Shown here: one piece after another, positions 924 to 51,214 of the stretch | Layout: every line of letters starts with the position of its first letter | Numbering within the stretch: the stretch's first letter is position 1 | From: a virus | Virus record (IMG/VR): IMGVR_UViG_3300036791_000368 | Coordinates: 1-52,434 of that record | Strand: one strand, 5' to 3' | DNA length: 52,434 nt | The notes under the pieces: model-generated | The model's input: only the letters and a program-made list of their open reading frames with translations | Database searches by the model: none | Told to the model about the DNA's origin: nothing | Position numbers and translations under genes: made by a program

Positions 924-1569
924 GCCGGAAGGTGAAGGTGAGTAACGTGTAAGCGACCCCGCAGGACACCACATACGCTTCAGGACGCTGATGGGCAACC
1001 ATGTGGTGAGCCCACTCTGCCCAAAATTGGGGCAACTTTCACGCGCGCCGGGCGGATTAGGGGGTCCGGCCAGCTGGAGATAGTGGGCCGGTCAAACCGG
1101 CTGGCAGGACATAATCACCACAGGGTCAGGAAAACCTCTAATCCTGACTAAATAGTTCCGTTATTATAAAGGTACAGGATTACCTTAAAGTAGTCACCTA
1201 TTAGGCAAATAAAAAAAACACGACGTAATATAAGAGTCAGGAGTTCCCAAAACTAGGGCCTTACGGTAGTTTTTGGGTACTTGTCGGGGGAAGATTTATA
1301 CATATATTACTGATATAATATAGTCCTAATATATATATATCCTGATATTTAAGCGGAAATCCCGTCACGAGTGACGGCCGGGGATTCCTAACATATTACG
1401 GCATATTATATGTGTTATTACCGTAATATATTACTAATCGTTACATAACATATTACGACATAGGTAATATATGTGACCGTAATATATTACTTATCCTGAC
1501 AGAAGAGAGGGAGATTACCTGACTCTTTACGTAAAAGCCGCAGTCTCCTAATAGCACCAAATAGGACTC
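924..1569. other. Long non-coding region, candidate replication origin
   Basis: No supported gene. At 1001-1034 there is a second copy of the GTGGTGAGCCC-hairpin element seen at 151-182. CCGTCAC-GA-GTGACGG (1362-1377) forms a hairpin. From about 1290 to 1490 the DNA is very AT-rich and carries repeated short words: the palindrome GTAATATATTAC at 1423-1434 and 1479-1490, ACATATTACG at 1391-1400 and 1448-1457, and related variants. AT-rich DNA with iterated sites is what an initiator-bound origin or a centromere-like site looks like. The function is inferred only. Confidence 0.5.
1391..1490. repeat. Iterated AT-rich sites
   Basis: Two copies of GTAATATATTAC (1423-1434, 1479-1490) and two of ACATATTACG (1391-1400, 1448-1457), plus TAATATATGTGACC between them. 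The spacing between the paired words is 56-57 bases in both cases, so a unit of about 57 bp is duplicated imperfectly. Likely protein binding sites. Confidence 0.65.
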
Positions 1570-1599
1570 TAGATTTGTCCTATGACAATGCTATATAAT
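1570..1599 (+). promoter_or_regulatory. Early promoter P2
   Basis: -35 TAGATT at 1570-1575, 18 bp spacer, -10 TATAAT at 1594-1599. The upstream box AATAGCACC lies at about 1550-1558, as in most family members. It drives the gene at 1636. Confidence 0.8.
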
Positions 1600-1635
1600 A
1601 TCATTATACCAAAAAATAAAGGAGCAGGTATAAAC

Positions 1636-1872
1636 ATGTCAGAGGAAGAGACGGAGCAGGACTTCAAAAAGATCCACGTCCACCACTGGAAGACGGACGA
1701 CGTGGAACCAATGGACGAGTTCGATCTCGTCTGGAATGAGGTTTACGACCAGATCGGAGAGGAAGACGAACACTTCGTTCAGTACATCCTCGTGTGGTCC
1801 CGAGACGGAGTCGGAGACCCTAAAGAGTGGTTCGAACTTCGAGTACCGAAGCATCTCCCGACAAGTTCGTAA
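1636..1872 (+). CDS. Hypothetical acidic protein, 78 aa
   Basis: First gene behind P2. ATG 1636 is selected because AAAGGAG lies about 10 bases upstream. Strongly acidic N-terminal part (SEEETEQDF) and a central EEDEHFVQYIL segment; the product could be a DNA mimic or a partner of a basic protein, but composition alone does not show this. No family recognised. The next gene starts 16 bases after the stop. Confidence 0.7.
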   Translation: MSEEETEQDFKKIHVHHWKTDDVEPMDEFDLVWNEVYDQIGEEDEHFVQYILVWSRDGVGDPKEWFELRVPKHLPTSS

Positions 1873-1888
1873 GAAAGGTAGAAACAAT

Positions 1889-2044
1889 ATGTATTACGGC
1901 ATGGAACAAATAGAGGTGGACAACCGAGACTCGTTGACCACCTGGTTACGTTTCCCGAACGGGATCATCCTCGAGGTCACATTGCAGGATCTTCAGGATC
2001 TCATCCAGAACATGAATGACAACGCCGTCAAGGAAGAAAGGTAG
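1889..2044 (+). CDS. Hypothetical protein, 51 aa
   Basis: ATG 1889 preceded by AAAGGTAG. The reading frame continues upstream through the previous gene but only the part from 1889 is likely to be translated. The product ends in a predicted helix rich in Leu, Gln and Asn (LQDLQDLIQNMND). Unknown function; second gene of the P2 operon. Confidence 0.6.
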   Translation: MYYGMEQIEVDNRDSLTTWLRFPNGIILEVTLQDLQDLIQNMNDNAVKEER

Positions 2045-2049
2045 ACCCT

Positions 2050-2415
2050 GTGGAGAACAACGGCAACCACAACGACGACGCTTCTGAGTACTGGGACCCT
2101 AAGGAATTTGTGCGTGACGACGTCATTACGGACTGGGAGGGGTTTACCAGTCCAGAAGAGATGAGTCAGCACATCGGGTGGATCCGGCGCTTGGTTACCG
2201 ACCACCCGGAATCGCCGGCGGTGTCATTCGTTGCGGATCTGACACTACACTGGGTTCACGAGAACATGGACCAGGCGGATAACAGCCCAACTGAGGCAGA
2301 AACAATAGAGATGTACTACGCGATCCTGAACGTCTTTGATGGCGGAAGTTTCATGAAGTCCGGAATCGATTGGCGGGGCGAGGCACCTTCAAATAGCACC
2401 ATAGAGGACGCTTGA
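2050..2415 (+). CDS. Hypothetical protein, 121 aa
   Basis: GTG start at 2050, five bases after the previous stop, with AAGAAAGG upstream. Acidic protein with WVHE and Trp-rich patches; no family recognised. Its last residues (NSTIEDA) and stop are encoded by the upstream box and -35 element of promoter P3: AATAGCACC is read as part of N-S-T, and the stop TGA is inside TTGATT. Its GTG start also sits inside one copy of the dispersed word CCCTGTGG (2046-2053). Confidence 0.68.
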   Translation: MENNGNHNDDASEYWDPKEFVRDDVITDWEGFTSPEEMSQHIGWIRRLVTDHPESPAVSFVADLTLHWVHENMDQADNSPTEAETIEMYYAILNVFDGGSFMKSGIDWRGEAPSNSTIEDA

Positions 2416-2914: not shown

Positions 2915-3094
2915 ATGTATAAGTGGACGAAGACGTACGCAGTGAACACGAAGTTCAGTGACCCTGTGGAAATCGGGCAAATCATTGAGGTTGACGCGGC
3001 TTCTGGTAGTTCCAAGCAGAAGGTGCTGTCAGTCACAGTGCGCCGCAACCAAAAGGGTGACGAGTACAAGACAGTCATCGTTGAGGCTGTCTGA
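2915..3094 (+). CDS. Hypothetical protein, 59 aa
   Basis: ATG 2915 preceded by the strong site GAAAGGAGGTGA. The product has alternating hydrophobic and charged residues and reads as a small beta-rich fold (KVLSVTVRRN, KTVIVEAV). Unknown function. The ribosome site lies right behind a 27 bp hairpin, so its translation may be controlled by RNA structure. Confidence 0.7.
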   Translation: MYKWTKTYAVNTKFSDPVEIGQIIEVDAASGSSKQKVLSVTVRRNQKGDEYKTVIVEAV

Positions 3095-3544: not shown

Positions 3545-3616
3545 GAAGGTGGAAGAGCTCCGGCTCTTCTCCCTGCCTAAATTGGGTCCTGAGCAAAATA
3601 GCACCAAATCGCACTC

Positions 3617-3646
3617 TTGATTTGTCCTTATGTCCTGCGTTATAAT
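3617..3646 (+). promoter_or_regulatory. Early promoter P4
   Basis: TTGATT 3617-3622, 18 bp, TATAAT 3641-3646, with the upstream box AATAGCACC at about 3598-3606. Drives the genes at 3677 and 3919. Confidence 0.88.
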
Positions 3647-3676
3647 AGAAGTAAGAGAGAGAAAAGGAGGTGAGAA

Positions 3677-3918: not shown

Positions 3919-4149
3919 GTGAAACACAAAAACCGGAACGGGATAAAAGTGACTTGTTACTGGTGCAAGAACGACAACCACCAGTCCTGCAGCAATGAGG
4001 ACCCAGACCTCAGTGAGTACGTGTACTGCCATTGTGAGTGCCAACCTCCCTGTGGAGAGCCAAACTGTGACAAGGCCGTTCGCCTAACAAAACGAGCACC
4101 AGGAACCGTAACCAAATGGAAGCACGACGACCCCAGGTGGGAGCGGTAA
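3919..4149 (+). CDS. Cys-rich zinc-binding-like protein, 76 aa
   Basis: GTG 3919, placed after GGGAGGTGA. Eight or more Cys arranged in pairs (CYWC, CHCEC, CGEPNC) over 50 residues, with a basic C-terminal part, point to one or two zinc sites. Such miniproteins are common in actinophage early regions and are often nucleic-acid or protein binding. The particular family is not recognised. Confidence 0.65.
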   Translation: MKHKNRNGIKVTCYWCKNDNHQSCSNEDPDLSEYVYCHCECQPPCGEPNCDKAVRLTKRAPGTVTKWKHDDPRWER

Positions 4150-4174
4150 CAAAAATAGCACCCAAATCGCACGC

Positions 4175-5243: not shown

Positions 5244-5251
5244 TAGCACTC

Positions 5252-5786: not shown

Positions 5787-6164
5787 ATGTCGGAACAAGA
5801 AATAGTAATTCCCGAGCCTGAGGAGGTGACACCTGAGCAGCTCCAGGAGGAGCTTACCACAGGGTCAAACCTTCGTGGCATCGGCCTTGAGCAGGAGGGA
5901 GACATCGAGCGCATGCAGGAGCAGCTCGAGCACGGTGTCATCAACCCAATCCTGCTCGCGAGGTACATCAGCGTTCGTCCGCAGATGATTTACCAAGCCA
6001 TCCGCGACGGAAAGCTGACCGCAGTTGACTTCAACAACACCCAGAAGAAGTTCATCCGCATCGAGGAGGCGATCAGGTACGCCAGTCGTTACCTCAACAG
6101 GAAGCAGCAGCGCGACCTGGAGAAGCTCCGGGAAGAAGCCATCCTGAAGCAGCAGGCCAGTTAG
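5787..6164 (+). CDS. Putative winged-helix DNA-binding protein B
   Basis: 125 aa; ATG 5787 after GAGGAAAGGAAAC. An acidic N-terminal 50 residues is followed by LLARYISVRPQMIYQAIRDG, a helix-turn-helix, a short wing (KKFIRIEEA) and a C-terminal basic coiled-coil-like helix. The layout is that of excisionase/MerR-like winged helices. Related in pattern to the products at 2482 and 10087. It could bind the repeated promoters or the origin-like repeats; not shown by sequence alone. Confidence 0.65.
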   Translation: MSEQEIVIPEPEEVTPEQLQEELTTGSNLRGIGLEQEGDIERMQEQLEHGVINPILLARYISVRPQMIYQAIRDGKLTAVDFNNTQKKFIRIEEAIRYASRYLNRKQQRDLEKLREEAILKQQAS

Positions 6165-9228: not shown

Positions 9229-9910
9229 TCGTCGATTCATGCCCGACAAAGTACGCAGACCTCGAGACGAAATGGTACTGGCGGTCGCACAACTTGAAAT
9301 AGCTGGACTGACAGTAGCTGGTAGTTGGAGACGACAGAAGGACACAATAGGCGACCTCGACATACTTGTACCGAACGTCTATAACATGGTGACAGCGGTA
9401 CATACTGCACAACTGTTCTTCGGCTACGAGGAGATCCGCGGCGGTGCTATGAAGTCAGAAGGCATAGCGACGTACAAAGATGCACCACTCCTCCTGAACT
9501 TCTGGTACGTACCAAATGAACTTGCCTGGGCGGGCATGTTATTGTTCGCCACAGGGCCACACGATCTGAACATCATGATGCGTGCGAAGGCCAAAGCACA
9601 AGGCAAAACACTTTCGCAGTACGGACTTTTCCAAGACGATGTTCAACTCGACAACGGCCTTGAGGAGGACCAAATCTTCGACCTCCTCGGCATTGTCTAC
9701 CTTACCCCTGTGGAGCGTGAGACGTGGCGGGACTATTTGATCAGGACGCCGAGCCCGAATATCGAGGTACAAGTCCCGAGCTCGGATGGAGTACACGCCT
9801 ATACCGTCACGCTGAAAGACGGGAAAGGTTTCGACTGTACTTGCAAAGGGTTCGCCTACAGGAACTCCTGCCGCCATCTCCGGGAAGCCGAGGAGCTTGG
9901 CAATGGATAA
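9221..9910 (+). CDS. PolX-like nucleotidyltransferase fused to a SWIM zinc finger
   Basis: 229 aa; ATG 9221 (or the adjacent 9218) after CAGGAG. Residues 33-50 read AGSWRRQKDTIGDLDILV, the palm signature of family X DNA polymerases (G-S-x-R-R...G-D-x-D-I). FGYEEIRGG, then FATGPHDLNIMMRAKAKAQG and YGLF follow in the order found in the bacterial PolX palm and thumb; the N-terminal 8 kDa and fingers domains and the PHP domain are missing. Near residue 93, where PolX has the third catalytic Asp (VDLRVV), this protein has Asn (LNFWYV). The last 35 residues form a SWIM finger, CTC...CRH. Probably acts in DNA repair or end processing, or binds DNA without catalysis. Confidence 0.8.
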   Translation: MSDRRFMPDKVRRPRDEMVLAVAQLEIAGLTVAGSWRRQKDTIGDLDILVPNVYNMVTAVHTAQLFFGYEEIRGGAMKSEGIATYKDAPLLLNFWYVPNELAWAGMLLFATGPHDLNIMMRAKAKAQGKTLSQYGLFQDDVQLDNGLEEDQIFDLLGIVYLTPVERETWRDYLIRTPSPNIEVQVPSSDGVHAYTVTLKDGKGFDCTCKGFAYRNSCRHLREAEELGNG

Positions 9911-11344: not shown

Positions 11345-11556
11345 AGATTGACTTCGTATCTAACTTCTTAGGCGAAGCGATCGTGTGGAGAACAGAAAGC
11401 CAAAGTAGGCCAGGCATGTTCCACTACACGTCCAAGCTTCGAGCAGGTGGCATAGTCTGCTCCTGTGAGGGGTGGCAGTACAACGGTTACTGCAAGCACA
11501 TGGAGAACCTTCCTGCGGAGAAGGTTGAAGCGGCCATGAAGGCTTGGCATGATTGA
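11341..11556 (+). CDS. SWIM zinc-finger protein, 71 aa
   Basis: ATG 11341 in an ATGA overlap. After a short beta segment, residues 40-52 read CSCEGWQYNGYCKH, a C-x-C-x8-C-x-H SWIM motif, followed by one helix. SWIM fingers bind DNA or proteins and are often fused to SNF2 helicases in bacteria. The gene sits directly before, and overlaps, an SNF2-type helicase, so the two probably work together, as a split version of the usual fusion. Confidence 0.78.
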   Translation: MKIDFVSNFLGEAIVWRTESQSRPGMFHYTSKLRAGGIVCSCEGWQYNGYCKHMENLPAEKVEAAMKAWHD

Positions 11557-12901
11557 ACTCTTCCCTTTCCAGAAGGAGGATGTCGAGTACCTCGACGGTA
11601 AGGTGAGCGCACTCATCGCCAATGAAATGGGAACAGGAAAGACCTACGAGGCGATCGCTAGAGACCAAAGGTTCCGTAACGGTCGACCAGGAGCTACGTT
11701 AGTAATAGCACCACTCACTATCCTCGAGGACGTCTGGAAGAAACACTTCGAAGAGCTGACCGACCTCAAGGTTGTCGCTCTGGATCCGAAAGACCGAAAG
11801 CGCTCGTGGGCTTACTGGCACGCGATTGCCGGCGACGTGTTTATCGTTCACTGGGAAGCTCTGAGACTGATGCCTGAGTTGCAGGAGGTACAGTGGCTCC
11901 ACGTGATCGCTGATGAGGTCCACAGGGCTAAGAATCGAAAGGCGCAACAGACTAAGGCCCTGAAGACGATTAAGCGTGTCAGGTATAAGACAGCAATGTC
12001 AGGTACCCCTGTTGTCAATAGACCAGACGAGATGTGGAGCATCCTGAACTGGCTGTACCCAAAGACCTATACTTCGTACTGGCGCTTCTTCAATAGGTAC
12101 GTTGCGACCGAGACTAAGTACTTCCGAGGACGTACAGTACGAGTGATAACAGGTCCAAAGAATCTAGAAGCCATGCACGAGGAGCTCGAACCATTCTACG
12201 TCAGGCGTCGCAAAGAGGAAGTGCTTCCTGACTTACCAGATAAGTACTACACCGAGATCAAAGTCGACTTAACACCAACGCAGCGTCGAGCATACGATAC
12301 AATGCGGAAGGAGATGATAGCCTGGATCGGTAACCAGGAGCAAGAAGTCTTAGCAGCCCCTGTGGTGATAGCACAGCTCATCCGGTTGCAGCAGTTCGCC
12401 GTCGCCTTCGCAGAGTACGACGGAGACCATATCAGGTTATCAGAACCAAGTTCCAAGCTCGACGCACTCATGGAGGTCTTAGATGAATCGGAAGAGTCGA
12501 TTGTGGTCTTCAGTCGATTCAAGCAACTTGTCAACCTTGCATCGCGACGTCTCGATTCGGCGTCCATTTCGTATGTTACCCTTACAGGTGATACGGGTCA
12601 AGCCGTACGCAGGCTCAACGTCGACCGGTTCCAGAAGGGTGACGTACGCGTTTTCGTTGGGACTCTCGGAGCTGGCGGTATCGGTATCACACTCACGCGA
12701 GCAAGTACGGTATGCTTTCTCGATCGTGATTGGTCACCGGCCCTTAACCTCCAAGCGGAAGACCGACTCCACCGAATCGGACAAACCAACGCCGTTCAAG
12801 TCATCGACATCGTAGCACGCAATACGGTTGATGCAGGTAAGAAACAAATGCTTGAACTGAAGAAGAGTTGGATTCGAGCCATCTTAGGCGATCCAAAATA
12901 G
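11549..12901 (+). CDS. SNF2-type DNA helicase/translocase
   Basis: 450 aa; ATG 11549 overlaps the SWIM gene. Motif I is MGTGKT (residues 27-32); motif II is ADEVH; motif III is AMSGTP; the second RecA domain has VVFSRF, GAGGIGITLTRAS and the arginine-finger region QAEDRLHRIGQT typical of SNF2 enzymes. All catalytic motifs are intact. It probably remodels or translocates on DNA in replication or repair. Its stop TAG is part of the AATAGCACC box of promoter P11. Confidence 0.93.
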   Translation: MIELFPFQKEDVEYLDGKVSALIANEMGTGKTYEAIARDQRFRNGRPGATLVIAPLTILEDVWKKHFEELTDLKVVALDPKDRKRSWAYWHAIAGDVFIVHWEALRLMPELQEVQWLHVIADEVHRAKNRKAQQTKALKTIKRVRYKTAMSGTPVVNRPDEMWSILNWLYPKTYTSYWRFFNRYVATETKYFRGRTVRVITGPKNLEAMHEELEPFYVRRRKEEVLPDLPDKYYTEIKVDLTPTQRRAYDTMRKEMIAWIGNQEQEVLAAPVVIAQLIRLQQFAVAFAEYDGDHIRLSEPSSKLDALMEVLDESEESIVVFSRFKQLVNLASRRLDSASISYVTLTGDTGQAVRRLNVDRFQKGDVRVFVGTLGAGGIGITLTRASTVCFLDRDWSPALNLQAEDRLHRIGQTNAVQVIDIVARNTVDAGKKQMLELKKSWIRAILGDPK

Positions 12902-13414: not shown

Positions 13415-14049
13415 GGGTACTCGTTGTATGCGCCAAGCGTTACAACGGTCACGAGTTGTGGACGGCTCTCGGAGTTATGACCCAGCGAGGTCATGAGTTC
13501 GAAGTCGTCTCCCAAGACACACTAGTCCGCGACGAGATCACTCTTCGACCAAACACCATCGATCGCGTACTGTACCAAGTAGGTACACGGGAACTGACGG
13601 ACCGATTCGACGCTCTGATGTTCGTATCTGGCAACATGCAGGACACAGAAGCATACTGGACTGACGGTCATGCTCTAGCACTCGTGGAAGGGAACGGAGA
13701 CCGACCTACTGCTGCCATCTGTTGTTCCGTACCTACAATCAGGCACGCAGCAGTTGGGAAACGTGTATCCTACTTTCCTCTCCTACGCTCTAGACAGTTA
13801 CTAAGCGAGGCCGGAGCTATCCTAAATCCGGTTAGCGTAACCGCAGACGAGAACATCGTGACCGCAGAACACCAAATGGGATCTCAACGGTGGGCTCGTG
13901 TCTTCTGTAACATCCTCGAAGGTAAAGACTCTGATGTTGGCCTAGTAGAGTCTAACTTTCCTACACCTAGCCGAGAGCGTCGCCCTGTGGCCGCAGTGGA
14001 AAGACTCAAGCGACCTTCGGATAGAATCAAGATCAGGAAACCAAAATAG
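13411..14049 (+). CDS. DJ-1/PfpI-family protein
   Basis: 212 aa; GTG 13411 overlaps the previous stop. The core matches class-I-amidotransferase-like DJ-1/PfpI proteins: N-terminal VLVVCAKRYNG, a variable middle, then RPTAAICCSVPTIRHAA holding the nucleophile-elbow Cys, VSYFP, LLSEAGA and the closing NIVTAEHQ region. The residue after the elbow Cys is Cys where many family members have His. These proteins act as deglycases, proteases or amidotransferase-like enzymes; the substrate here is unknown. The basic 35-residue tail is extra. Confidence 0.72.
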   Translation: MRVLVVCAKRYNGHELWTALGVMTQRGHEFEVVSQDTLVRDEITLRPNTIDRVLYQVGTRELTDRFDALMFVSGNMQDTEAYWTDGHALALVEGNGDRPTAAICCSVPTIRHAAVGKRVSYFPLLRSRQLLSEAGAILNPVSVTADENIVTAEHQMGSQRWARVFCNILEGKDSDVGLVESNFPTPSRERRPVAAVERLKRPSDRIKIRKPK

Positions 14050-14061: not shown

Positions 14062-14922
14062 TTGAATAACGATCCATTCCCTTTGACACAATGCAAGACC
14101 CTTAAGTCCGTCGACTTCGCGAAGCTGAACAAGCAGCGCTTCGTAATGGAACCAAAGATCGACGGTTGGCGACTCCAAGTGGAGGTAGATGAGGCTGACG
14201 TTCAGGCTTGGACACGAACTAACCATAACGCAACAGGTAAACTTCCAATGGTTGAGAATCACCTCGCTGTAGCCTTCATCCCTGAAGGTACGCGGCTCGA
14301 TGGCGAGGTTGTTTACCTTGACAGTAACGGAGATCCGGACTTCAACTTTACTAGTCGGTGTATGGGAAGTGGAGTCGACGTATGCGTCGACAAGCAACAG
14401 CTTGAGGAACGATACCTATCGTACGTTGTGTTCGATATCCTACGTCTAGGCGATCGAGACCTTAGAGCCCAGCCATACGAAGAGCGGCGGAGCATCCTGG
14501 AAAAGCTGCTGAAGGGTTATAGTCCCTACGTACCAGTAATCGAAGTTGGTGCAGCGACTGAAGAGGCTCACGCTAAGAACATCAACAAGTACGGCGAGGG
14601 ATCTATTCTCAAAGACCTGTCAGCACCCTATGCTGGCAAGCGTCACAAGTCATGGCTTAAATGGAAAGCGGACGAAACGATGGACGTTCGTATCGTCGGC
14701 TACAAAGAAGGACAAGGAAAGTACAATGGTCTCATTGGAGCCATCACCTTCGTAGCAGGTGACGGTACGTTCGGCAACTGTAGTGGGATGGATGACGATA
14801 CGCGGGTACACATCTCGGACCACAGGGGCAGTTTGATCGGGAAGACCATTGAGGTGAAGCACTACGGTAAGCTCGTCGACGGTTGGCGGCACCCTCAGTT
14901 CATCCGATTCCGAGATGAGTAA
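14062..14922 (+). CDS. ATP-dependent DNA ligase
   Basis: 286 aa; TTG 14062 preceded by GAAAGAGGAAC. The nucleotidyl-transfer motif EPKIDGWR puts the active Lys at residue 32. RLDGEVV (motif III), VVFDIL (motif IIIa), EGSILKD (motif IV) and WLKWK (motif V) follow in order, and the C-terminal third is the OB-fold. Length and layout match short viral ATP ligases. Seals nicks in replication and repair. It would complete a base-excision set with the UDG-polymerase fusion and perhaps the PolX-like protein. Confidence 0.93.
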   Translation: MNNDPFPLTQCKTLKSVDFAKLNKQRFVMEPKIDGWRLQVEVDEADVQAWTRTNHNATGKLPMVENHLAVAFIPEGTRLDGEVVYLDSNGDPDFNFTSRCMGSGVDVCVDKQQLEERYLSYVVFDILRLGDRDLRAQPYEERRSILEKLLKGYSPYVPVIEVGAATEEAHAKNINKYGEGSILKDLSAPYAGKRHKSWLKWKADETMDVRIVGYKEGQGKYNGLIGAITFVAGDGTFGNCSGMDDDTRVHISDHRGSLIGKTIEVKHYGKLVDGWRHPQFIRFRDE

Positions 14923-15332: not shown

Positions 15333-16322
15333 TTGCAGATCATACGTACAAGCGACAGATCGTATTTCAAACGGTGTCGTGTGCTTTGGGATTATACAAG
15401 TAAGATCCGACAGAACTACGAACCAATTCAACGTATCGAGGCGCTAGACTTCGGTACAGCAATGCACAAGGCCCTAGAGGCTTATTACCAACCTACGACG
15501 TGGGGCAACCAAGGCCTGAAGGAGGCGAACACCCTTCAGGCCTTTAATAATGCCATCAAGGATATAGGGATAAAGGTACGAATAGGACCTCTAGAGTTCG
15601 AGGAACGTTGGAACGAGCTACGTCAGTTAGGTCTGGACATGCTCGTTTTTTATTTTGCCTATGCACAAAACCATGATGCCTTTACTCCTACGTTTGTAGA
15701 GATCGAGTTCGAGGTACCTATACCAGGAATGGATGGTGTAGTCTACCAAGGTCGTATCGACTTGATAGCCGACGACGAATACGGCTACTGGATCATTGAC
15801 CACAAGACGACGGCACAGTTCGGTGGTACGGAATGGTTGGCTCTAGATGACCAGTGTAGTTCGTATGCCTGGGCTATCTGGATGAAGCTAGGACTCCAAG
15901 TGCGTGGTGTTATCTTCAACGAGCTTCGGAAGAAGGCACCCTCGAAGCCTAGGGTACTGCTGAGTGGCCAGCTTAGCGTCGCTAAGAATCAAGATACAAC
16001 CTACGAAACGTACCTACAGGCCATCCGCGATGGTGGCTATAAGGAAGAAGCCTATCGTGACTTCCTGGACTACCTCAAGATGAACCAGAGGGAGTTCGTT
16101 CGTAGGACAAGGATCGTCTTTAGGCCTGAGACGCTTGCGATCGTTGAAAAGCGAATCCAGTTGGAAGCGCACGAGATGCTGGACAACCCAAGCATCTACC
16201 CAACACCTTCGAGGATGAACTGTAACGGTTGTTCGTTCTTTGCACCTTGTCTAGCTCTGCATGAAGGAAGAGATCCAGAAACAATCCTTGACGAAAACTA
16301 TGAACGGAGGGCAAATGCCTGA
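15333..16322 (+). CDS. Cas4/RecB-like PD-(D/E)XK nuclease
   Basis: 329 aa; TTG 15333. Residues near 130-150 contain GRIDLIADDE and WIIDHKTT, the D...D-x-K nuclease core. Cys 15 region (KRCRV) and the C-terminal CNGCSFFAPC provide four Cys for an iron-sulphur cluster, as in Cas4/AddB-type nucleases. The Sak4-like ATPase and SSB-like genes close by suggest a recombination module in which this enzyme resects ends. A role as a host-DNA nuclease is also possible. Confidence 0.88.
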   Translation: MQIIRTSDRSYFKRCRVLWDYTSKIRQNYEPIQRIEALDFGTAMHKALEAYYQPTTWGNQGLKEANTLQAFNNAIKDIGIKVRIGPLEFEERWNELRQLGLDMLVFYFAYAQNHDAFTPTFVEIEFEVPIPGMDGVVYQGRIDLIADDEYGYWIIDHKTTAQFGGTEWLALDDQCSSYAWAIWMKLGLQVRGVIFNELRKKAPSKPRVLLSGQLSVAKNQDTTYETYLQAIRDGGYKEEAYRDFLDYLKMNQREFVRRTRIVFRPETLAIVEKRIQLEAHEMLDNPSIYPTPSRMNCNGCSFFAPCLALHEGRDPETILDENYERRANA

Positions 16323-16551
16323 TAAAGAAGAACTAGACCGACGCTTTACGTATCACCCACCAGACGCCGCGACTCGTGAGCTCCACGACGAGTGGCGTAA
16401 GCACGAGCGGTGGTACGCCGATCACATTAACGACCTTCCTGGAGGAGAAACAAGAGAGAAGTCGCTTGCTTTCACGGCACTAGAGGAAGCAACATTTTGG
16501 GTTCATGCCCACATCGCACGCAATCTCCATCCAAAGGAGAACAGTGCCTGA
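16315..16551 (+). CDS. acb2: Acb2-type anti-CBASS cyclic-nucleotide sponge
   Basis: 78 aa; ATG 16315 after CGGAGGG. RRFTYHPP near the N-terminus and REKSLAFTALEEATFWVHAH followed by IARN at the C-terminus are the two signatures of the Acb2/Tad1-hairpin family (usual forms R-F-x-Y-H-P-P and R-E-x-S-L-A-x-T-x-L-E-E-A). Acb2 proteins form hexamers that bind cyclic di- and trinucleotides and so block CBASS immunity. Length (60-95 aa) fits. Its central part differs from Pseudomonas relatives, so ligand preference cannot be read from the sequence. It overlaps the following recombination gene. Confidence 0.85.
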   Translation: MPDKEELDRRFTYHPPDAATRELHDEWRKHERWYADHINDLPGGETREKSLAFTALEEATFWVHAHIARNLHPKENSA

Positions 16552-17341
16552 GGCAAGAGACCTACTAGATGCACCTACACCCATACCCGCACCAGTGCTT
16601 ACACCAGACACAATAGCGGGTCTACGTATCGTATCGCCAGAGGCATACGAGTGGATCAAGCTGCTGGTGTATGGAGAACCTGGTGTTGGCAAGACACGCT
16701 TCGCAGGGTCAGCAGTACTAGTACCAGAGATGCAGCCAGTACTAGTACTAGACTTCGAGGGCGGTACGCTTTCACTACAGGACATGTCTGACATCAACAT
16801 CGTACGATTGACCTCTTGGGAGAAGGTCGATAGGTTGTACGGTAGCTTGTATGACAAGAACCCATACAAGACGATCGTTGTGGACAGCTTGTCCGAACTA
16901 CAGAAGTTCTCTATGTCAGAGATCATGAGGCAAGTAGTACAGAAGGACTCAGAGCGTGACCCTGACATCGCGTCACTACGTGAGTGGGGCAAGAGCAGTG
17001 AGCAAGTACGACGTTTCGTTAGAGCGTTTCGTGACCTACAGTGCAACGTAATATTCACAGCCCTCAACAGTGAGGACCGAGACGAGCGTACGAACACAAT
17101 CAAATCCAGACCAGGACTGCCAGGTAAGTTGAAGGGCGAAGTGTCTGGATACGTCGACATCGTGTTGTATATGTATAGAAAGGAGATACGAGTAGACGGA
17201 AATAGAAAGATACAAACACTGGTGCTAACCCAAGGAACGGAAAGACAACAAGCAAAAGACCGAAGTGGTAAGCTGCCTGAGCTCCTCGAAGCACCAACAA
17301 TGCAGGACGTTTACAACTACATCAGAGGAAGGGATTCATGA
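16544..17341 (+). CDS. Sak4-like RecA-fold ATPase
   Basis: 265 aa; GTG 16544 is chosen for the AAGGAG six bases upstream, rather than the ATG at 16505 without a ribosome site. Walker A GEPGVGKT near residue 45, Walker B-like VLVLDFEGG, KTIVVDSLSEL, then a Lys/Arg-rich loop. This matches phage AAA/Sak4 single-strand annealing proteins (RecA-like core). The neighbouring DUF669-like gene is the usual partner. Function: strand annealing in recombination or DNA repair. Confidence 0.85.
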   Translation: MPEARDLLDAPTPIPAPVLTPDTIAGLRIVSPEAYEWIKLLVYGEPGVGKTRFAGSAVLVPEMQPVLVLDFEGGTLSLQDMSDINIVRLTSWEKVDRLYGSLYDKNPYKTIVVDSLSELQKFSMSEIMRQVVQKDSERDPDIASLREWGKSSEQVRRFVRAFRDLQCNVIFTALNSEDRDERTNTIKSRPGLPGKLKGEVSGYVDIVLYMYRKEIRVDGNRKIQTLVLTQGTERQQAKDRSGKLPELLEAPTMQDVYNYIRGRDS

Positions 17342-30777: not shown

Positions 30778-31347
30778 CTAGTTCACGGACAGAAGGTGTA
30801 CTGAGAAGTTCCACAGGGAGACGTACCCCGCTGGGCAGACACCAGCTTGACCTGTACCGTTGTAGTAGGCAATGGCAAGGGTGTCTCCTGCGACGCAGGC
30901 TACCTGGTCGTTGACTTCCGCTTCCCACGCCGTCGATGTGATAGCCGTCTGCGCTGCGCGGGCATACTCCGAGCTATTTTTCATAATCACGATATACGCC
31001 TGACCACCAGCGTTGTTGAAACCGATGTATACCCTACCGACCGCAAGGTATACACCTGGTATGGGTGCAGTAAACGTCCCCGCACCTATGTTCAACAAAC
31101 CGTAGGCGTCATACACCGTTTGGTTGTAAGTGCTGGTGTACGTAGTCGCTGTTGCGGGAATGTTCTGCTGTACATTGGTGTTCGCCTTTGCACGGATGAC
31201 ATCTCGCGCACGTCTCCATGCACCACTAGCTACTCCGTTCTTCGCAACCCACACGTCACCGTTCGGATCGGTATAGGTCTGGACTGTCGTACCCGTCGTA
31301 ACCGGTGGAGGTAGAGGAACAATAGTGGCGTACGTAGCGATAGTCAT
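30778..31347 (-). CDS. Tail fibre protein with C1q-like head
   Basis: 189 aa; ATG 31347 overlaps the stop of the longer fibre gene. TVQTYTDPNGDVWVAKNGVA, GAWRRARDV, then a beta-sandwich with IPGVYLAVGRVYIG and CVAGDTLAIAYY, as in C1q/TNF-like heads of phage fibres. Shares the VWVAKNGV/ARDV module with the next two genes, but has no collagen run. Confidence 0.78.
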   Translation of the reverse strand: MTIATYATIVPLPPPVTTGTTVQTYTDPNGDVWVAKNGVASGAWRRARDVIRAKANTNVQQNIPATATTYTSTYNQTVYDAYGLLNIGAGTFTAPIPGVYLAVGRVYIGFNNAGGQAYIVIMKNSSEYARAAQTAITSTAWEAEVNDQVACVAGDTLAIAYYNGTGQAGVCPAGYVSLWNFSVHLLSVN

Positions 31348-33466: not shown

Positions 33467-33801
33467 GGCATTCCTTCCTCCGTTACGTCAGCTGTCACGG
33501 TGACTGTACCTGCGACGACTGTCGTGACACCGTTAGGACCGTCGAGCTCCAAATCCCAAACGCCGTTGAAGCACGTGTCGCTAAGTGTCGCGGATAGCTT
33601 TACGTCTACGATGTTCGGTGTGCTTACCGTGCACGCCATCTCTATCGGCCCAGCTATACCAGGTCCCTTACGGATCTGTGCCTTCGCGGTTACCCCCGTT
33701 AGATCCACAGGGGTCGTCATCGCAGTATCTTGCCAGAGTTTAAACTGCCAGTCGTATGAGTCACCTTGGTAGATCTGTAGGTTGAAATTACCTGGTGCCA
33801 T
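33463..33801 (-). CDS. Small baseplate/tail protein, 112 aa
   Basis: ATG 33801 behind AAAGGAGG. FNLQIYQGDSYDWQFKLW start, TPVDLTGVTAKAQIRK and a final beta strand rich in Thr/Val are typical of small Ig-like phage baseplate proteins (BppU N-terminal-like) placed before fibre genes. Likely connects fibres to the tail tip. Confidence 0.72.
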   Translation of the reverse strand: MAPGNFNLQIYQGDSYDWQFKLWQDTAMTTPVDLTGVTAKAQIRKGPGIAGPIEMACTVSTPNIVDVKLSATLSDTCFNGVWDLELDGPNGVTTVVAGTVTVTADVTEEGMP

Positions 33802-36947: not shown

Positions 36948-39900
36948 CACCCTGCCTTTCTCTGCGCCATGTAGAAGTCTGCCATATTCATGAACGCTTT
37001 CATGTCCGTCTGGTCCTGGAACGTAACGTGCTCAATGGTGATCATCGGGCCATTGTAGCCACCCATTGGCGATACGTATTCATTTCTCCCTGTGGTATTG
37101 AGAGCCATCGTAAGGCCTGGGGGAAGAACACCACCAGCGTCATACCAACCAAACTTCTGTTCGTGTGTCCAAGCTCCTTGCGGTGATCCGTAACGCTGAG
37201 TGATGTAGTTGAGCATAGCTCGAATCTGGCCCTGCGGTGACAGGTCACCACCGTACTGTGCATACCACGATGGTCCAGTGATACCTTGTGCAAGACCGTA
37301 CGCACCTGAACTTGGGTTCCTCGCGTTCGGGTCAAAGTTTGCCTCACGCTTCTCGACGTTATACAACGCTGTCCATTCTGCCCCAGTCCAACCACGAGCA
37401 GCGGCTGCAGCCTGCATCTGTGCTTGAATGCTGCCAGTTGCTGCTCCAGCGGGAGCAGCACCTCCACCTAGTCCTAGAGCGCCTGCAATACCAGAAAGGA
37501 GACTTCCGAATCCACTTAGCACATGCCCCGAGAGGCTGTTTGCTAGAGAGATACCTCCCGATAGGATGCTGTTGAAGAGGTTTGTCGCCGATGTTACACC
37601 ACCAGCGATCGGACCCAAGATTATACCGATACCCGGAACCTTCGCTAGTTGTGTTAGGATCTCACCTGGTATCTGATCTAGAGAGATAAGCCCCTTCGCG
37701 ACCATGTGCGCGAGGGCAGTTGGTAGATCGCCAAAGATTTTCTTCGCCACGTCTACCCAGTTTCGAGACATTAGTCCCTGGATGAAGCCTTCGATTGTGT
37801 TCCTACCTAGCTCAGCCATCACGGTTGAGGGCGACTTGATTCCGAAGAAGTGTAAGACAGCATTGATGATTGGCTGCACGATGTTGTTGTTGACCCAGTT
37901 CCAAACGTCCTTCAACGCATCGGTGATTCCATTGAAGAGTCCTGAGATGACATCCTTACCGACTTGTACTAGCCATGTGATAGCTTTACCCGTAAATTCC
38001 ACCGCATCCTTGATGGCGGTTGGGAAGCCCGTAAAGAACTTCCAGATCACGTTGTCCCATATCCAGGTGATTCCAGTCCAAAGACCTTGGAGGATATCCT
38101 TACCTGCCTGCAACAGCCAGCCCGGAGCATCCAAGAACACGTTCTTGACTACCTTCGGAATGTTAGAGAAGAAAGGCCAGATTATATTATTCCAAACCCA
38201 CTTCAATCCGTCCCAGAGACCGTTAAGGATATCTTTACCAACCTGCAGTAACCAGCTAGGAGCACCCTCAAACACACTGGCGATATCATTACCGAGATCC
38301 TTGATCCAGCCCCAAGCGACATCCCAGGTATCCTTCATGTCTTTCCACAGGCCTTTGAAGAAGGTTAACAATCCTCTCCAGTGCCCTATGATTGTAAGAG
38401 GTATGCCAATGAACGGAAGGAAGATGTCAACCGCAACCAGAGCAAACGTATGTCCATCTTTCTTGATGGTCTCCCAGAGGTCCTTGAAGAAGGTAATCAG
38501 TCCTCGCCAGTGTAGAGCAATGAATACAGGGATTGCGATGAACGGCAAGGAGAAGGCGAGCCAGCCTAGGATTACCGTGCCCATCCATCCGTGCATCCAG
38601 TGCCAAAAGTCTTCGAAGGGTGTCTTGACATCTCTCCACAACTTCTCGAAGAACCCTACGATCCCCTTCCAGTGCAACGCGATCTCCAACGGTATACCAA
38701 GGAAGGGATCTAGGACGACAAGAAGGGCTGCGATAGCCTGTCCCCAACTACCATGCATCCACTTCCAGAAGTCGTCGAACCACTGCTTAACCGTAGACCA
38801 GTGCTTCACGATCTCGTAGGCTGCAAGCCCTAGTAAGGCAAGGGCTAGAAGAATCTCTCCTACACCAGTCGCATCAAGCGAGATACCGATAGCTTCTAGT
38901 CCGGCCGAGATAGCAATAAGACCGTTTGCAATAATCGGCCACAATATCTCTGTACTCAAATAGAACAACGCTTTACCTAGACCCTCGAGAGCCTTAACAA
39001 CAGTCGGTAGTAGTCCCATCTTGTTGAAGATAAACGCAAAGGCTGCTACGTCAGCAAGGATAGGCCCTATAAGAGGAATCTTGAGAATCGCGTCGATGAT
39101 CTTGACGATGATTGTTAGGGCATTGGTAAACGCTGGACCGAATGCCAACTCGATCTGACCGAAGGTACCGATGACTGTCGGGAGCAACTTCAGCATTGCG
39201 ATCAACTCGTTCTTGTGTGCCTCGAACAAGTTGTGTACCGCTGCTTTTCCTGACGTCGAGGTTAGGTAGTCATGTAGCTGTTGGAGCATACCCGTAAGAG
39301 TCTTCGCGAAAGCCTGACCTTGTCCAGCTGAGAGGTTGAAGAACTGATAAATGTCCTTGAACATTATATCGAAGAGACCTAACCACGTATGGAACAGACT
39401 GAAGAGGTTGTCAAACTCTTTATGCCACTTCTCGGTGCCAGCAGGTGTGTTGAACTTAGTTACCAGTTTGTCGATTGTAGTAAGAAAGCCTCCAGTGTGC
39501 TGTGCAGCGTAGTCAAGCATCTTAATAATGAGCTCGACACCCTGTACGAAGATATGCATCGCAGTCGGCAAATGCTCCTGGAACATCTTCTCGAAGTCGG
39601 TGAAGATTTTGAGTCCTGGCCCCTGCATCCACGTAAACAGAGGCTGTAACGCCTTCTGAATGATCAGCATATTCTCACTGGCGTACTTGCCGATGATCGG
39701 GAGGAACTTCTCGCCAACCTGGACCATCTGCGTGAGGATCTCAGCACCAGTCTTCTCCGCAGGACCCGTCAGCTGATCGAACATGTTCTTGAACTGAGTT
39801 GTGGTCGTGTTGAGTGCGATGATGGCAGGGGCAGCAACAGCCGGGAACTGACTAACGGCGTAGTTCAGGGCGTTCTGTGCGTGCACCGCCTCTGTGCTAC

Positions 39901-40564: not shown

Positions 40565-40820
40565 CGTCGATCACCGTAAAGCCTGATTCGCGGAACTCCT
40601 CCATACTAGCCCCTGTGGGATCGAGCTCCCACTCGTCAGACTCACCTCCCTTAATCAGTTCCTCCTGCAGCATCCCCTCAACATACACCTGTCTCACCCA
40701 CCAAGGAGTGTCCAACCACTCTCGATGCGACATACCTAGGTGTCGTCTTGCTACGTATAGAAGTACTCGTTCTTGAGGCCCGCCACTTAGGAACTCGTAG
40801 CGAGCCTCACTCCTTCCGGG
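40557..40820 (-). CDS. Tail assembly chaperone, frameshifted extension
   Basis: A -1 frame open from above 40820 to TGA 40557-40559 has no start of its own. Read after a -1 shift near the end of the 40787 gene, it adds EARYEFLSGGPQERVLLYVA-type sequence, then LGMSHREWLDTPWWV and an acidic end, typical of the second part of siphovirus tail chaperones. CCCGGAA at 40814-40820 is one possible slip site, though its A-site re-pairing is poor. It ends eight bases inside the tape measure gene. Confidence 0.82.
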   Translation of the reverse strand, partial: PGRSEARYEFLSGGPQERVLLYVARRHLGMSHREWLDTPWWVRQVYVEGMLQEELIKGGESDEWELDPTGASMEEFRESGFTVIDGG

Positions 40821-41190: not shown

Positions 41191-42102
41191 CTATGAATGT
41201 GGTGCTGTGAAGTCGTAGATCTGGATAGCCGAAATCGGACATACTGACTGAAAGTCAGCCGTGTACATACGCTTCGCAGCAGCACGACGGAACGCACCAC
41301 TTGCGTTCGCCAAACAAGTCGTCACTGGAACATACAGCCACCTCGGATACCCAAGACGGTTGGCCATGATCAGCGCAACAGCGTACTGCAGGATGGTATC
41401 CGTCGGATTCAGCTGGGTGTACCCAGGAACCGTCAGTGATGGTGCAGACGCTATAGCCAACATGTTGTAGGCCATCGCGAGCGTACTCGAAATGTCTTCA
41501 GACAACGCACCTGAGACGGTCAACGACTGTGTCGTCATTTCCATTGCAACTGGTGATGACTGCTCTTCAATGTTGATCGCCTGCGTCGACTTGTTCGATG
41601 CAAACGTCCAACCTTGGTCCGTGGCTCCTACTGGGGTCCACAGGGGTTGAGTGAGAGTCAGCGTACCACCAGTAATGCCTGTTGGTACCTGAGACCACGT
41701 ACCGCCCATCAGCCGCTCAGCAAGTGCGATCGAGAATGGCGTTCCAACTGCAGTCAAAGGACCACCGGTAACGCTCACCTCGGACGGCAGTGCTGGACCA
41801 CCAGCTGCAGCAGGAAATGTTGACAGTGCTGCCACAATCGCAGTCGCTAGCTGTGCTGCTGTAGCACTCCACTGAACCGGTGCTGTTGCATATGGTGTCC
41901 CAGCTACCGTGTACGTCATTATGAATGTACCAGCAGTCAAAGCACCAGACGTACTCAACGTTGCTGAAGCCCACGGTGCGAGTGAGAACGGATCTGTCAT
42001 CACCGCAGAAGCCGGGGGCGGCATCGGTGTGTTCGCAGGTGCAACCAAGCACGCAGCTTGACCAACAACGACGTTGTTGGTGTTGTACAATTGCCCAATC
42101 AT
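41191..42102 (-). CDS. Major tail tube protein
   Basis: 303 aa; ATG 42102, GAGGTGAG upstream. Ala/Thr/Ser-rich beta protein with an Ig-like insertion (GTFIMTYTVAGTPYATAPVQ) and a C-terminal core; the place before the chaperones identifies it as the tube subunit. No strong motif, but size, composition and order agree. Confidence 0.85.
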   Translation of the reverse strand: MIGQLYNTNNVVVGQAACLVAPANTPMPPPASAVMTDPFSLAPWASATLSTSGALTAGTFIMTYTVAGTPYATAPVQWSATAAQLATAIVAALSTFPAAAGGPALPSEVSVTGGPLTAVGTPFSIALAERLMGGTWSQVPTGITGGTLTLTQPLWTPVGATDQGWTFASNKSTQAINIEEQSSPVAMEMTTQSLTVSGALSEDISSTLAMAYNMLAIASAPSLTVPGYTQLNPTDTILQYAVALIMANRLGYPRWLYVPVTTCLANASGAFRRAAAKRMYTADFQSVCPISAIQIYDFTAPHS

Positions 42103-49935: not shown

Positions 49936-49942
49936 TCACTCG

Positions 49943-50446
49943 TTAGACCGGCGCCACGTAGTCGGGCGGCTGGAATGGTGGCAGGTTGCCAAACACGAAC
50001 GCCTTGAGCGCTTCCTTCTGCTCGTCGCTCAGTCCCGGCGGCAGTACGATCGGGTGCTCGGGGTACACAGGCCAGTAGATCGGGTGTTCAGGGTGAGCGT
50101 CGTTGTCGGGCGGCGGTACCGGGACGTAAATCGGTGGCATCACCCAGGGTGGCAACTCATTGTCGACCCCTGGTTGGGCACCTGGCAGTGTGTTGTCAAT
50201 GCCGGGCTGGTCACCTGGCAACGTGTTGTCGATCCACTCAGGTGGTACACCGCCCCAGAAGCCTGGTGGACTACCTGGTGGCGGCACCGGAATGTAAATC
50301 GGTGGTGACGGACGTGGATCATTCGGACCCCAAATGCTGAGCGGTGGCTCGATCGGAATGTAGATCGGTGGCATGGGGTGATCGTCTTCGTCAGCCGAAA
50401 CCAACATAGTTCCCTCGACTACAACGTTAACCTTCTTCAGTGGCAT
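49943..50446 (-). CDS. Pro-rich repeat protein, 167 aa
   Basis: ATG 50446 after GGAGCAG. Contains repeated PPIYIPVPPP-type blocks (four) and a triplicated IDNTLPG-x-QPG unit. Low complexity and extended, with a short hydrophobic C-terminal helix. Similar Pro-rich proteins occur near the terminase of actinophages; function unknown, possibly a virion appendage. Confidence 0.7.
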   Translation of the reverse strand: MPLKKVNVVVEGTMLVSADEDDHPMPPIYIPIEPPLSIWGPNDPRPSPPIYIPVPPPGSPPGFWGGVPPEWIDNTLPGDQPGIDNTLPGAQPGVDNELPPWVMPPIYVPVPPPDNDAHPEHPIYWPVYPEHPIVLPPGLSDEQKEALKAFVFGNLPPFQPPDYVAPV

Positions 50447-50486
50447 ACTGCTCCTCTCATCATGTTGCTCTCATTGGTCGGGTTTG

Positions 50487-50675
50487 TCATTCAGATCCAT
50501 GATCCTTCCCGTTTGTGGGAAGAGTAACAAGAATAATTGCCAGTCCGCCTAGAAGGCCGACCGTTCCGAGTAACTCAGTGCTGATCGACTGATTCTGCGT
50601 GAGTACGATGAGCGACAATGTAAGCGTGCCTACTCCCAATAGGATAAGGTAGGCGACGCGGCGCGCCCTGGTCAT
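50487..50675 (-). CDS. Small membrane protein, holin candidate, 62 aa
   Basis: ATG 50675. Two hydrophobic segments (residues 8-25 and 35-53: YLILLGVGTLTLSLIVL, LLGTVGLLGGLAIILV) with a positive N-terminus and charged tail, as in class II holins. A second two-span protein is encoded at 51215-51430, so which of them is the holin is open. One CCCTGTGG copy lies just before its start. Confidence 0.68.
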   Translation of the reverse strand: MTRARRVAYLILLGVGTLTLSLIVLTQNQSISTELLGTVGLLGGLAIILVTLPTNGKDHGSE

Positions 50676-50709
50676 TCATTTTCCACAGGGTGTTGGAGTC
50701 ATAGGTGCC

Positions 50710-51180
50710 TCATGCTGGTAGTGCGAGGGTGAAGGGTAACGTGTTGCCAATCACGTTGTCCCCAGCGTCCAGGACGGATATCGCCGAGCTTGCATCGCCT
50801 GACGTGTCGGTGACACCAGAGGGTATGGCGAACACGATCTGCGTGTCGGTCTGCGTCCAAAAAGCACTACCCGCAAGTACAACCGACCCATCCGGGAGTA
50901 GAATCGACGCTACTCCCATCAAGCCTGTCCCCGTTATCGTGATCAGGTCGCCTGCCCATCCTGACCCTGGTACAACACTCTGCAGATCCGGACCAGTGGA
51001 AGCAATGGTTGACCACGTACCCACGTTGTGAGGCGTGTTTGGGTCCCATCTGAGCCCTGCTTCTCGGTCTTCCCATACTGGACCAGGGCCTGGATCGGGA
51101 GACTGTGTGACTGTGTCCCACGCTTGCATCTCCGGGTCCCATAGGTGTCCCGTCGAGTAGCGGACCCAAACAGGCATCAT
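50710..51180 (-). CDS. Ig-like (IPT/TIG) domain protein, 156 aa
   Basis: ATG 51180 or 51177, with AAAGGCC upstream. The first 60 residues have WDPxxxxWxx-like repeats (Trp-Asp-Pro twice). The second half (GSGWAGDLITITGTGL, VVLAGSAFWTQTDTQIVFAIP, GDASSAISVLDAG) is an IPT/TIG Ig-like fold. Such domains occur in virion surface proteins and adhere to cell glycans. Confidence 0.72.
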   Translation of the reverse strand: MMPVWVRYSTGHLWDPEMQAWDTVTQSPDPGPGPVWEDREAGLRWDPNTPHNVGTWSTIASTGPDLQSVVPGSGWAGDLITITGTGLMGVASILLPDGSVVLAGSAFWTQTDTQIVFAIPSGVTDTSGDASSAISVLDAGDNVIGNTLPFTLALPA

Positions 51181-51214
51181 GAGGCCTTTGATCCACAGGG
51201 GCTAGTTGTTACAG

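What the first reader, a model, noticed from the sequence alone, without database searches (positions are those of the whole stretch)
1118..51200. 8-base word CCCTGTGG is strongly over-represented across the whole genome
Counting by eye I find CCCTGTGG starting at 2046, 2962, 4048, 9706, 12358, 13983, 18827, 22180, 24656, 28586, 30640, 37088, 40611 and its complement CCACAGGG at 1118, 5857, 9549, 11920, 14820, 22963, 26331, 28196, 30811, 33715, 41638, 46347, 48918, 50683, 51193: 28 copies, where about 1.6 are expected for an 8-mer on both strands. The next base is mostly A or T and the preceding one mostly C or A. Copies lie in both arms, both orientations, in all frames, inside and between genes, so codon use does not explain it. 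Candidates: a stoperator-like repressor site, a Chi-like recombination signal, or the target of the DNA modification machinery.
Basis: partly seen in the sequence, partly recalled or inferred. Interest (0 to 1): 0.8.

Follow-up and report, generated by a model that had tools for sequence, protein, structure and literature searches.

The report
Genome-wide start sites for phage primase
This virus of bacteria repeats one exact eight-letter DNA word 28 times, spread along both strands, and the best reading is that the word marks where the virus's own primer-making enzyme starts new DNA pieces during copying; relatives with a related enzyme carry related words.

Summary
CCCTGTGG occurs 28 times (13 +, 15 -; Markov-3 expectation 1.1), is the most over-represented 8-mer, and its one-mismatch neighbours are not enriched (26 seen, 32 expected). 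One reader coordinate is off by ten (33705, not 33715).

The word is conserved at synonymous sites in relatives. It follows the replication genes, not the virion genes: contigs sharing only the replication module (primase 43-49% identical; no TerL, portal or capsid match) still carry it genome-wide. The best single-gene correlate is the protein at 18237-20417. Its model is an archaeo-eukaryotic-type primase (nearest solved fold RepB') fused to an MCM-like helicase. More distant primases go with related words sharing an STGTGS core (CTGTGC, GTGTGC, GTGTGG): 16 of 25 genomes with the primase, 0 of 17 without. In many, sites are evenly spaced on each strand separately. Characterised primases of this superfamily recognise GTG/GTGG, one in the model template CTGTGCTCA.

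Best explanation (about 0.7, untested at the bench): the word is this primase's template recognition site for lagging-strand priming. Host Chi, stoperator, single-strand nick motif and DNA-modification target fit worse. Comparable genome-wide words in other phages suggest a general phenomenon I did not find described.

The parts
1118..1125 (-). CCCTGTGG copy 1
   Evidence: exact match
2046..2053 (+). CCCTGTGG copy 2
   Evidence: exact match
2962..2969 (+). CCCTGTGG copy 3
   Evidence: exact match
4048..4055 (+). CCCTGTGG copy 4
   Evidence: exact match
5857..5864 (-). CCCTGTGG copy 5
   Evidence: exact match
9549..9556 (-). CCCTGTGG copy 6
   Evidence: exact match; kept in G002
9706..9713 (+). 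CCCTGTGG copy 7
   Evidence: exact match
11920..11927 (-). CCCTGTGG copy 8
   Evidence: exact match; kept in G002
12358..12365 (+). CCCTGTGG copy 9
   Evidence: exact match; kept in G002 and G010
13983..13990 (+). CCCTGTGG copy 10
   Evidence: exact match; kept in G002
14820..14827 (-). CCCTGTGG copy 11
   Evidence: exact match; kept in G002
18827..18834 (+). CCCTGTGG copy 12 (inside the primase gene)
   Evidence: exact match; kept in G002
22180..22187 (+). CCCTGTGG copy 13
   Evidence: exact match
22963..22970 (-). CCCTGTGG copy 14
   Evidence: exact match; kept in G002
24656..24663 (+). CCCTGTGG copy 15
   Evidence: exact match; kept in G002
26331..26338 (-). CCCTGTGG copy 16
   Evidence: exact match
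28196..28203 (-). CCCTGTGG copy 17
   Evidence: exact match; kept in G002 and G010
28586..28593 (+). CCCTGTGG copy 18
   Evidence: exact match
30640..30647 (+). CCCTGTGG copy 19
   Evidence: exact match
30811..30818 (-). CCCTGTGG copy 20
   Evidence: exact match
33705..33712 (-). CCCTGTGG copy 21 (reader gave 33715)
   Evidence: exact match; kept in G002
37088..37095 (+). CCCTGTGG copy 22
   Evidence: exact match; kept in G002
40611..40618 (+). CCCTGTGG copy 23
   Evidence: exact match; kept in G002
41638..41645 (-). CCCTGTGG copy 24
   Evidence: exact match; kept in G002 and L001
46347..46354 (-). CCCTGTGG copy 25
   Evidence: exact match; kept in G002, L001, L004, L007, L008
48918..48925 (-). 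CCCTGTGG copy 26
   Evidence: exact match; kept in L001
50683..50690 (-). CCCTGTGG copy 27
   Evidence: exact match
51193..51200 (-). CCCTGTGG copy 28
   Evidence: exact match
18237..20417 (+). primase-helicase gene: AEP-type primase domain (about aa 15-200), linker and helical region (about aa 201-330), MCM-like AAA+ helicase (DUF3987, about aa 331-660). Proposed reader of the word
   Evidence: PHROG DNA primase, Pfam DUF3987 and sub-threshold RepB_primase, AF2 model pLDDT 86, Foldseek best hits RepB' primase then MCM helicases, association with the word
11549..12901 (+). SNF2-type helicase, part of the replication module that travels with the word
   Evidence: Pfam PF00176; shared with contigs G329, G330, G332, G333
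15333..16322 (+). PD-(D/E)XK (Cas4-like) exonuclease, part of the module; candidate reader under the Chi-like rival
   Evidence: phrog_1218, Pfam PF12705; weaker association with STGTGS words, P 0.13
16505..17341 (+). Sak4-like recombinase, part of the module
   Evidence: phrog_124, Pfam AAA_24
24779..27085 (+). family A DNA polymerase with N-terminal uracil-DNA-glycosylase domain, part of the module
   Evidence: Pfam

Best explanation
CCCTGTGG is the template recognition (initiation) site of the phage's own DNA primase, the AEP-type primase fused to an MCM-like helicase encoded at 18237-20417. When a lagging-strand template is exposed, the primase binds the GTG(G) core and starts a primer opposite the T and C just 5' of it, so Okazaki fragments start at these words. 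Because both strands serve as lagging template, the genome is selected to keep a copy on each strand every few kb (13 and 15 copies in 52 kb, about 3.5-4 kb per strand) in any gene or gap that can hold one. As the primase diverges, the preferred word and its required length drift (CCCTGTGG, CTGTGG, CTGTGGGG, CTGTGC, GTGTGC, GTGTGG). Shown: the word, its conservation, its link to the replication module and best to the primase, strand-wise even spacing in several relatives, the fold. Inferred: that the primase reads the word, the exact start base, and that Okazaki fragments start there.
For: Word tracks the replication module: G329, G330, G331, G332, G333, G337 match the window in primase (43-48%), PolA and other replication genes but have no TerL, portal or major-capsid match, and carry CCCTGTGG or CCTGTGGN genome-wide. 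O/E of CCCTGTGG rises with primase identity over 32 loci (rho 0.85; related sequences, so the P is not corrected). Across 42 genomes an STGTGS-containing top word is found in 16 of 25 with the primase and 0 of 17 without (P 1e-5); other module genes and TerL associate less. Phages picked later by primase match alone: Jojan60 CTGTGC 105 vs 45 expected, CMP1 CTGTGCCT 18 vs 1. Sites are evenly spaced on each strand in Nonagon, KimJongPhill, Elinal, Muddy, G002, G329 (no control word of similar count equals them), and strands alternate more than chance in Amigo, KimJongPhill, Nonagon, Yappy. Fold: RepB' primase 3h20/3h25, the latter solved with initiator DNA. Literature: pRN1 primase needs GTG, model template CTGTGCTCA, primer starting opposite the two bases 5' of GTG (PMC8076596, PMC11009956); phage NrS-1 PrimPol uses an 8-nt site TTTGGTTA and, among GTG motifs, GTGA/GTGG best (PMC8718748); T7 Okazaki fragments 1-6 kb, about 26 proposed priming sites (PMC12839067). 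Third-codon positions inside words are conserved, 51/60 vs 61% background; 14 of 21 alignable sites kept in G002 vs 21%.
Against: No biochemistry. Nine of 25 genomes with a primase match lack an STGTGS top word (G335, G336, G337, G340, Kela, Frankenweenie, Platte; CN1A and G334 have variants CCGTGCG and TGTGCT); G336 has 46% primase identity but only 3 copies. Strand-wise evenness is weak in the window itself (+ P 0.18, - P 0.06) and absent in G010, G331, G333. In the UNTPL group, with a different Prim-Pol and the word GTGTAAACG, spacing is clearly even only when strands are pooled. T7, with a known primase site, shows neither its GTC words as top words nor even spacing. The module genes travel together, so the primase is the best but not the proven reader. 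The helical-region correlation inside the 40-52% identity band depends on which word is counted (rho 0.80 for CCTGTGG, 0.08 for CCCTGTGG). Genomes were sampled by homology, not at random.
Confidence: 0.7

Rival explanations
1. A Chi-like signal read by a phage-encoded (or host) double-strand-break processing enzyme, such as the Cas4-like PD-(D/E)XK exonuclease with the SNF2 helicase and Sak4 recombinase, protecting phage ends and promoting recombination.
For: Strict octamer, in genes, both orientations, even spacing; phages lacking RecBCD inhibitors over-represent host Chi (PMC3784561); the module encodes exonuclease and recombinase; G-rich words ending GTGG resemble known Chi octamers (own knowledge).
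Against: Host Chi: no sampled actinobacterial genome is enriched for CCCTGTGGA (198 genomes) or GTGTAAACG (297 genomes). Phage-encoded: Amigo, Nonagon and Yappy have words but no match to the exonuclease; Papyrus and StAshley have the exonuclease but no STGTGS top word. O/E about 26 is far above the median 3.1 reported for Chi in recombinase-less lambdoids.
Confidence: 0.12
2. Recognition site of a phage nicking endonuclease that leaves localized single-strand interruptions, as in phages tf, phiKMV and T5.
For: Short strict non-palindromic motif, dispersed at coding density, few near-matches, clade-specific (PMC3517423, PMC11780129). My scan recovers the tf motif TACTGTGAC, which shares CTGTG with this word.
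Against: In tf and its relatives, as in the other nicked groups cited, all nick sites lie on one strand; here 13 and 15. The association is with a primase family rather than a nuclease.
Confidence: 0.07
3. Stoperator-like binding site of a repressor or a nucleoid-type protein.
For: Many short copies per genome; different words in related phages would resemble immunity groups.
Against: [quoted passage not shown] here copies sit in genes at coding density in both senses, with no over-represented variants. I saw no integrase or repressor among the proteins I annotated (the small left-arm genes were not all searched).
Confidence: 0.04
4. Target of the phage's 7-deazaguanine DNA modification.
For: QueC, QueD, QueE-like and FolE genes at 20426-23244.
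Against: G010 has 25 copies but no QueC, QueD or FolE match; QueC or FolE presence does not predict the word (P 0.17 and 0.55).
Confidence: 0.02

Closest known systems
pRN1 ORF904 primase (AEP Prim-Pol with helix bundle domain)
   Same: AEP-type primase fused to a helicase; recognition core GTG; model template CTGTGCTCA contains CTGTG as in the window word
   Different: Trinucleotide requirement; archaeal plasmid; no genome-wide evenly spaced octamer reported in the papers read
NrS-1 phage PrimPol
   Same: Phage AEP enzyme; recognises an 8-nt site TTTGGTTA and GTGA/GTGG
   Different: Different details (serine loop, ring helicase); relation to site frequency in its genome not examined here
RSF1010 RepB' primase
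   Same: Nearest solved fold to the window primase (3h20, 3h25) and Pfam family (RepB_primase, 24 of 37 relatives); known to prime only at ssi sites (own knowledge)
   Different: Few plasmid sites rather than dozens of dispersed words; no MCM-like helicase fused
E. coli Chi and phage Chi enrichment
   Same: Strict G-rich octamer, dispersed in genes
   Different: Read by host RecBCD; host genome also enriched; O/E much lower
Localized nick motif of Pseudomonas phage tf and relatives
   Same: Strict dispersed motif sharing CTGTG, few near-matches
   Different: One strand only; linked to nicks
T7 gp4 primase sites
   Same: Okazaki spacing 1-6 kb, about 26 proposed active sites, similar to 28 copies here
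   Different: Short pentamer, not a top word or evenly spaced in my test; DnaG-type enzyme

Membership tests
AEP-type (RepB'/PrimPol) primase, protein 18237-20417 | AEP catalytic-domain fold | tested here: met
   AF2 model pLDDT 86; Foldseek 3h20 E 2e-8, 3h25 TM-score by target 0.70, S-2L PrimPol 6zp9 0.71
AEP-type (RepB'/PrimPol) primase, protein 18237-20417 | Family profile match | tested here: inconclusive
   Pfam RepB_primase 23.9 bits, just under cut-off 24.3; 24 of 37 relatives match, best E 2e-10
AEP-type (RepB'/PrimPol) primase, protein 18237-20417 | Conserved acidic catalytic pair | tested here: met
   D98 and D100 invariant in 37 sequences; catalysis itself not testable
Primase recognition site | Contains the known recognition core of the enzyme's superfamily | tested here: met
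   CTGTG and GTGG in the word; literature
Primase recognition site | Co-varies with the primase | tested here: met
   with listed exceptions
Primase recognition site | Present at Okazaki-like intervals on each strand | tested here: inconclusive
   Strong in Nonagon, KimJongPhill, Elinal, Muddy, G002, G329; weak in window; absent in G010, G331, G333
Primase recognition site | Primer synthesis starts at the site | not testable with these tools
   needs biochemistry
Host Chi | Over-represented in the host genome | tested here: inconclusive
   Not enriched in 198 actinobacterial genomes; host unknown
Stoperator | Intergenic or gene-end position and fixed orientation to transcription | tested here: not met
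   24 of 28 inside genes, both senses
Localized nick motif (tf, phiKMV, T5) | All sites on one strand | tested here: not met
   13 + and 15 -
DNA-modification target | Needs the modification genes | tested here: not met
   G010 keeps 25 copies with no match to QueC, QueD, FolE

The most novel reading that the evidence does not exclude
Many tailed phages that encode their own primase carry a genome-wide priming code: a strict word matched to the primase's specificity, kept at Okazaki-like intervals on each strand and rewritten along the genome, including in virion genes of other descent, when the replication module changes. Primase specificity could then be read directly from genome sequence.
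Probability: 0.5. Interest if true: 0.85.

Novelty: new variant of a known kind. Interest (0 to 1): 0.74.

Why it matters
Where primases start in vivo is mostly unknown; well-studied ones recognise only three to five bases and use few of the available sites (PMC12839067). Here the genome appears to advertise the sites. If right, priming specificity could be predicted for many phages from sequence alone, tested with simple oligonucleotide assays, and used to follow co-evolution of an enzyme with dozens of target sites. It could also explain odd repeated words in other phages, such as GTGTAAACG in Streptomyces phage UNTPL and GGGTGTGG in mycobacteriophage Muddy.

Tried and rejected
Host Chi: class-wide pattern scans of actinobacterial genomes show no enrichment. 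Host identification: one genome-collection scan with TerL found only Actinomadura prophage-like relatives without a strict dispersed word, so the host stays unknown. Deazaguanine modification rejected through G010. Stoperator and one-strand nick motif rejected on position and strand. A shared word set by TerL or virion genes rejected. A strand switch marking a replication origin: no significant change point in any genome. T7 as positive control did not show even spacing. Attribution to the helical region of the primase looked strong with CCTGTGG but vanished with CCCTGTGG, so I do not claim it. An accession guessed for phage NrS-1 was a different phage, so that control was not run.
Full report
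Observation. CCCTGTGG is present 28 times in the 52,434-base window, 13 forward and 15 reverse; one listed coordinate is off by ten. Composition predicts 1.9 and a third-order Markov model 1.07. It is the most over-represented 8-mer. The word is sharp: the 24 one-mismatch variants total 26 against 31.7 expected, and no flanking base is fixed, though the next base is A or T in 24 of 28. Copies lie in genes at the rate coding density predicts, in all frames and both senses. The spread is slightly more even than random (P about 0.02).

Relatives. The window is a virus record, with TerL, portal, capsid and tape measure on the right arm (leftward) and replication genes on the left arm. Viral contigs with TerL 66-94% identical all carry the word at 2-7 copies per 10 kb, including G010 at 61% GC (25 copies); more distant TerL relatives do not. 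Between window and G002 (79% DNA identity) 14 of 21 alignable copies are kept exactly against 21% for other 8-mers, and third-codon positions inside words are 85% conserved against 61%. So the word is under selection at the DNA level.

A wider phenomenon. Streptomyces phages UNTPL and Marky (TerL 47% and 43%) lack this enrichment but have their own strict dispersed word, GTGTAAACG, 33 and 28 copies in the first 50 kb against less than one expected. Other phages show Muddy GGGTGTGG, Elinal and KimJongPhill GGTGTGG, Nonagon CCTGTGCT, Amigo GTGTGC, Yappy CTGTGC, BSP7 CATCTGCGG, G314 GGGTGGCGGT. As a check, the scan recovers the experimentally known nick motif TACTGTGAC of phage tf (PMC3517423). 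GTGTAAACG is nearly absent from 297 actinobacterial genomes, and CCCTGTGGA is not enriched in 198. These are therefore probably phage-specific, not host, signals, with the reservation that the window's host is unknown.

What the word follows. Viral contigs found through the window's primase include G329, G330, G331, G332, G333 and G337, which match the window in primase (43-48%), PolA and other replication genes but show no TerL, portal or major-capsid match, and still carry CCCTGTGG or CCTGTGGN across the contig. Over 32 loci the O/E of CCCTGTGG rises with primase identity (rho 0.85; related sequences, so the P value is not independent). Below about 40% identity related words take over: CTGTGGGG, CTGTGC, GTGTGC, TGTGCT. 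Among 42 genomes or contigs over 34 kb, the top word by a fixed blind score or by Markov-3 contains STGTGS in 16 of 25 with the primase and 0 of 17 without (P 1.2e-5). The same test gives 0.0036 for the SNF2 helicase, 0.012 for Sak4, 0.043 for PolA, 0.13 for the exonuclease, 0.17 for QueC, 0.9 for TerL. The core was noticed on some of these genomes first; Jojan60 and CMP1 were fetched afterwards by primase match alone and fit, while Kela, Frankenweenie and LS06, fetched with them, did not give an STGTGS blind top word.

The protein. 18237-20417 encodes 726 aa. Pfam finds DUF3987 and a sub-threshold RepB_primase; 24 of 37 relatives match RepB_primase. The AF2 model (pLDDT 86) matches the RepB' primase, including the structure solved with initiator DNA, the S-2L PrimPol, and MCM helicases: an AEP-type primase fused to an MCM-like helicase. 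Phages with other words have other primases: UNTPL and G314 Prim-Pol with PriCT_1, BSP7 and Youna2 a DnaG-type CHC2/Toprim protein with an MCM domain, Muddy RepB_primase with AAA_25.

Spacing. In KimJongPhill, Nonagon, Elinal, Muddy, G002 and G329 the sites are more evenly spaced on each strand than every control word of similar count in the same genome, and in Amigo, KimJongPhill, Nonagon and Yappy the strands alternate more than chance. That is expected if each strand must offer a site at intervals. It is weak in the window (few sites) and absent in G010, G331 and G333. UNTPL-type phages are clearly even only with strands pooled. These are real limits on the claim.

Mechanism. The pRN1 AEP primase requires GTG, was studied on template CTGTGCTCA, and starts opposite the two bases 5' of GTG. 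The phage NrS-1 enzyme uses an 8-nt site and, among GTG motifs, prefers GTGA/GTGG. CCCTGTGG holds both CTGTG and GTGG. T7 Okazaki fragments are 1-6 kb with about 26 proposed active sites; the window has 13 and 15 sites in 52 kb. The simplest account is a primase recognition site for lagging-strand priming. Steps shown: word, selection, module link, fold. Steps inferred: the primase as reader, start base, Okazaki ends.

Verdict. A well-founded observation with a testable explanation at about 0.7. Primase recognition sites are known; a strict, genome-wide set of them that changes with the primase was not found in the literature I could search, which is a partial library.

Noticed in passing
window 20426-23244: QueC, QueD-like, QueE-like radical SAM and FolE genes, a preQ0 (7-deazaguanine) pathway; I did not identify a DpdA-type transferase.
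   Followed up: partly
window about 339-402, 1546-1630, 2391-2457, 3588-3675, 4150-4211, 5228-5291, 5700-5768, 8185-8254: A repeated element of about 60 bp in the left arm, shared with G002 and L003; the over-represented TATAATAG-type words suggest a set of early promoters, but I did not check that they lie in this element.
   Followed up: no
window 24779-27085: Uracil-DNA-glycosylase domain fused in front of 3'-5' exonuclease and family A polymerase.
   Followed up: no
window 15170-15244: A single tRNA-Cys (gca) gene.
   Followed up: no
L062 and L063 (Streptomyces phages UNTPL, Marky): GTGTAAACG, 33 and 28 copies in 50 kb with hardly any one-mismatch neighbours; several copies sit directly before start codons.
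   Followed up: partly
L195 and L232-L234 (Pseudomonas phage tf): The published nick motif TACT/RTGMC has its nick between CT and GTG, the coordinate where an AEP primase would start; possibly the nick motif and a priming site are related, though the nick is on the motif strand.
   Followed up: no
G336 (L322-L324): Primase 46% identical but a different strict word, AGTCTAAC/GTTAGACT, 13 copies against 0.7 expected: a possible word switch.
   Followed up: no
G314 (L168-L170): Dispersed GGGTGGCGGT, 33 copies, mostly on one strand, in a phage with Prim-Pol and PriCT_1.
   Followed up: partly
G016 contig C299 (L066-L068): 55.8 kb phage-like contig in an Actinomadura assembly; its TerL match is split into two pieces.
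   Followed up: no
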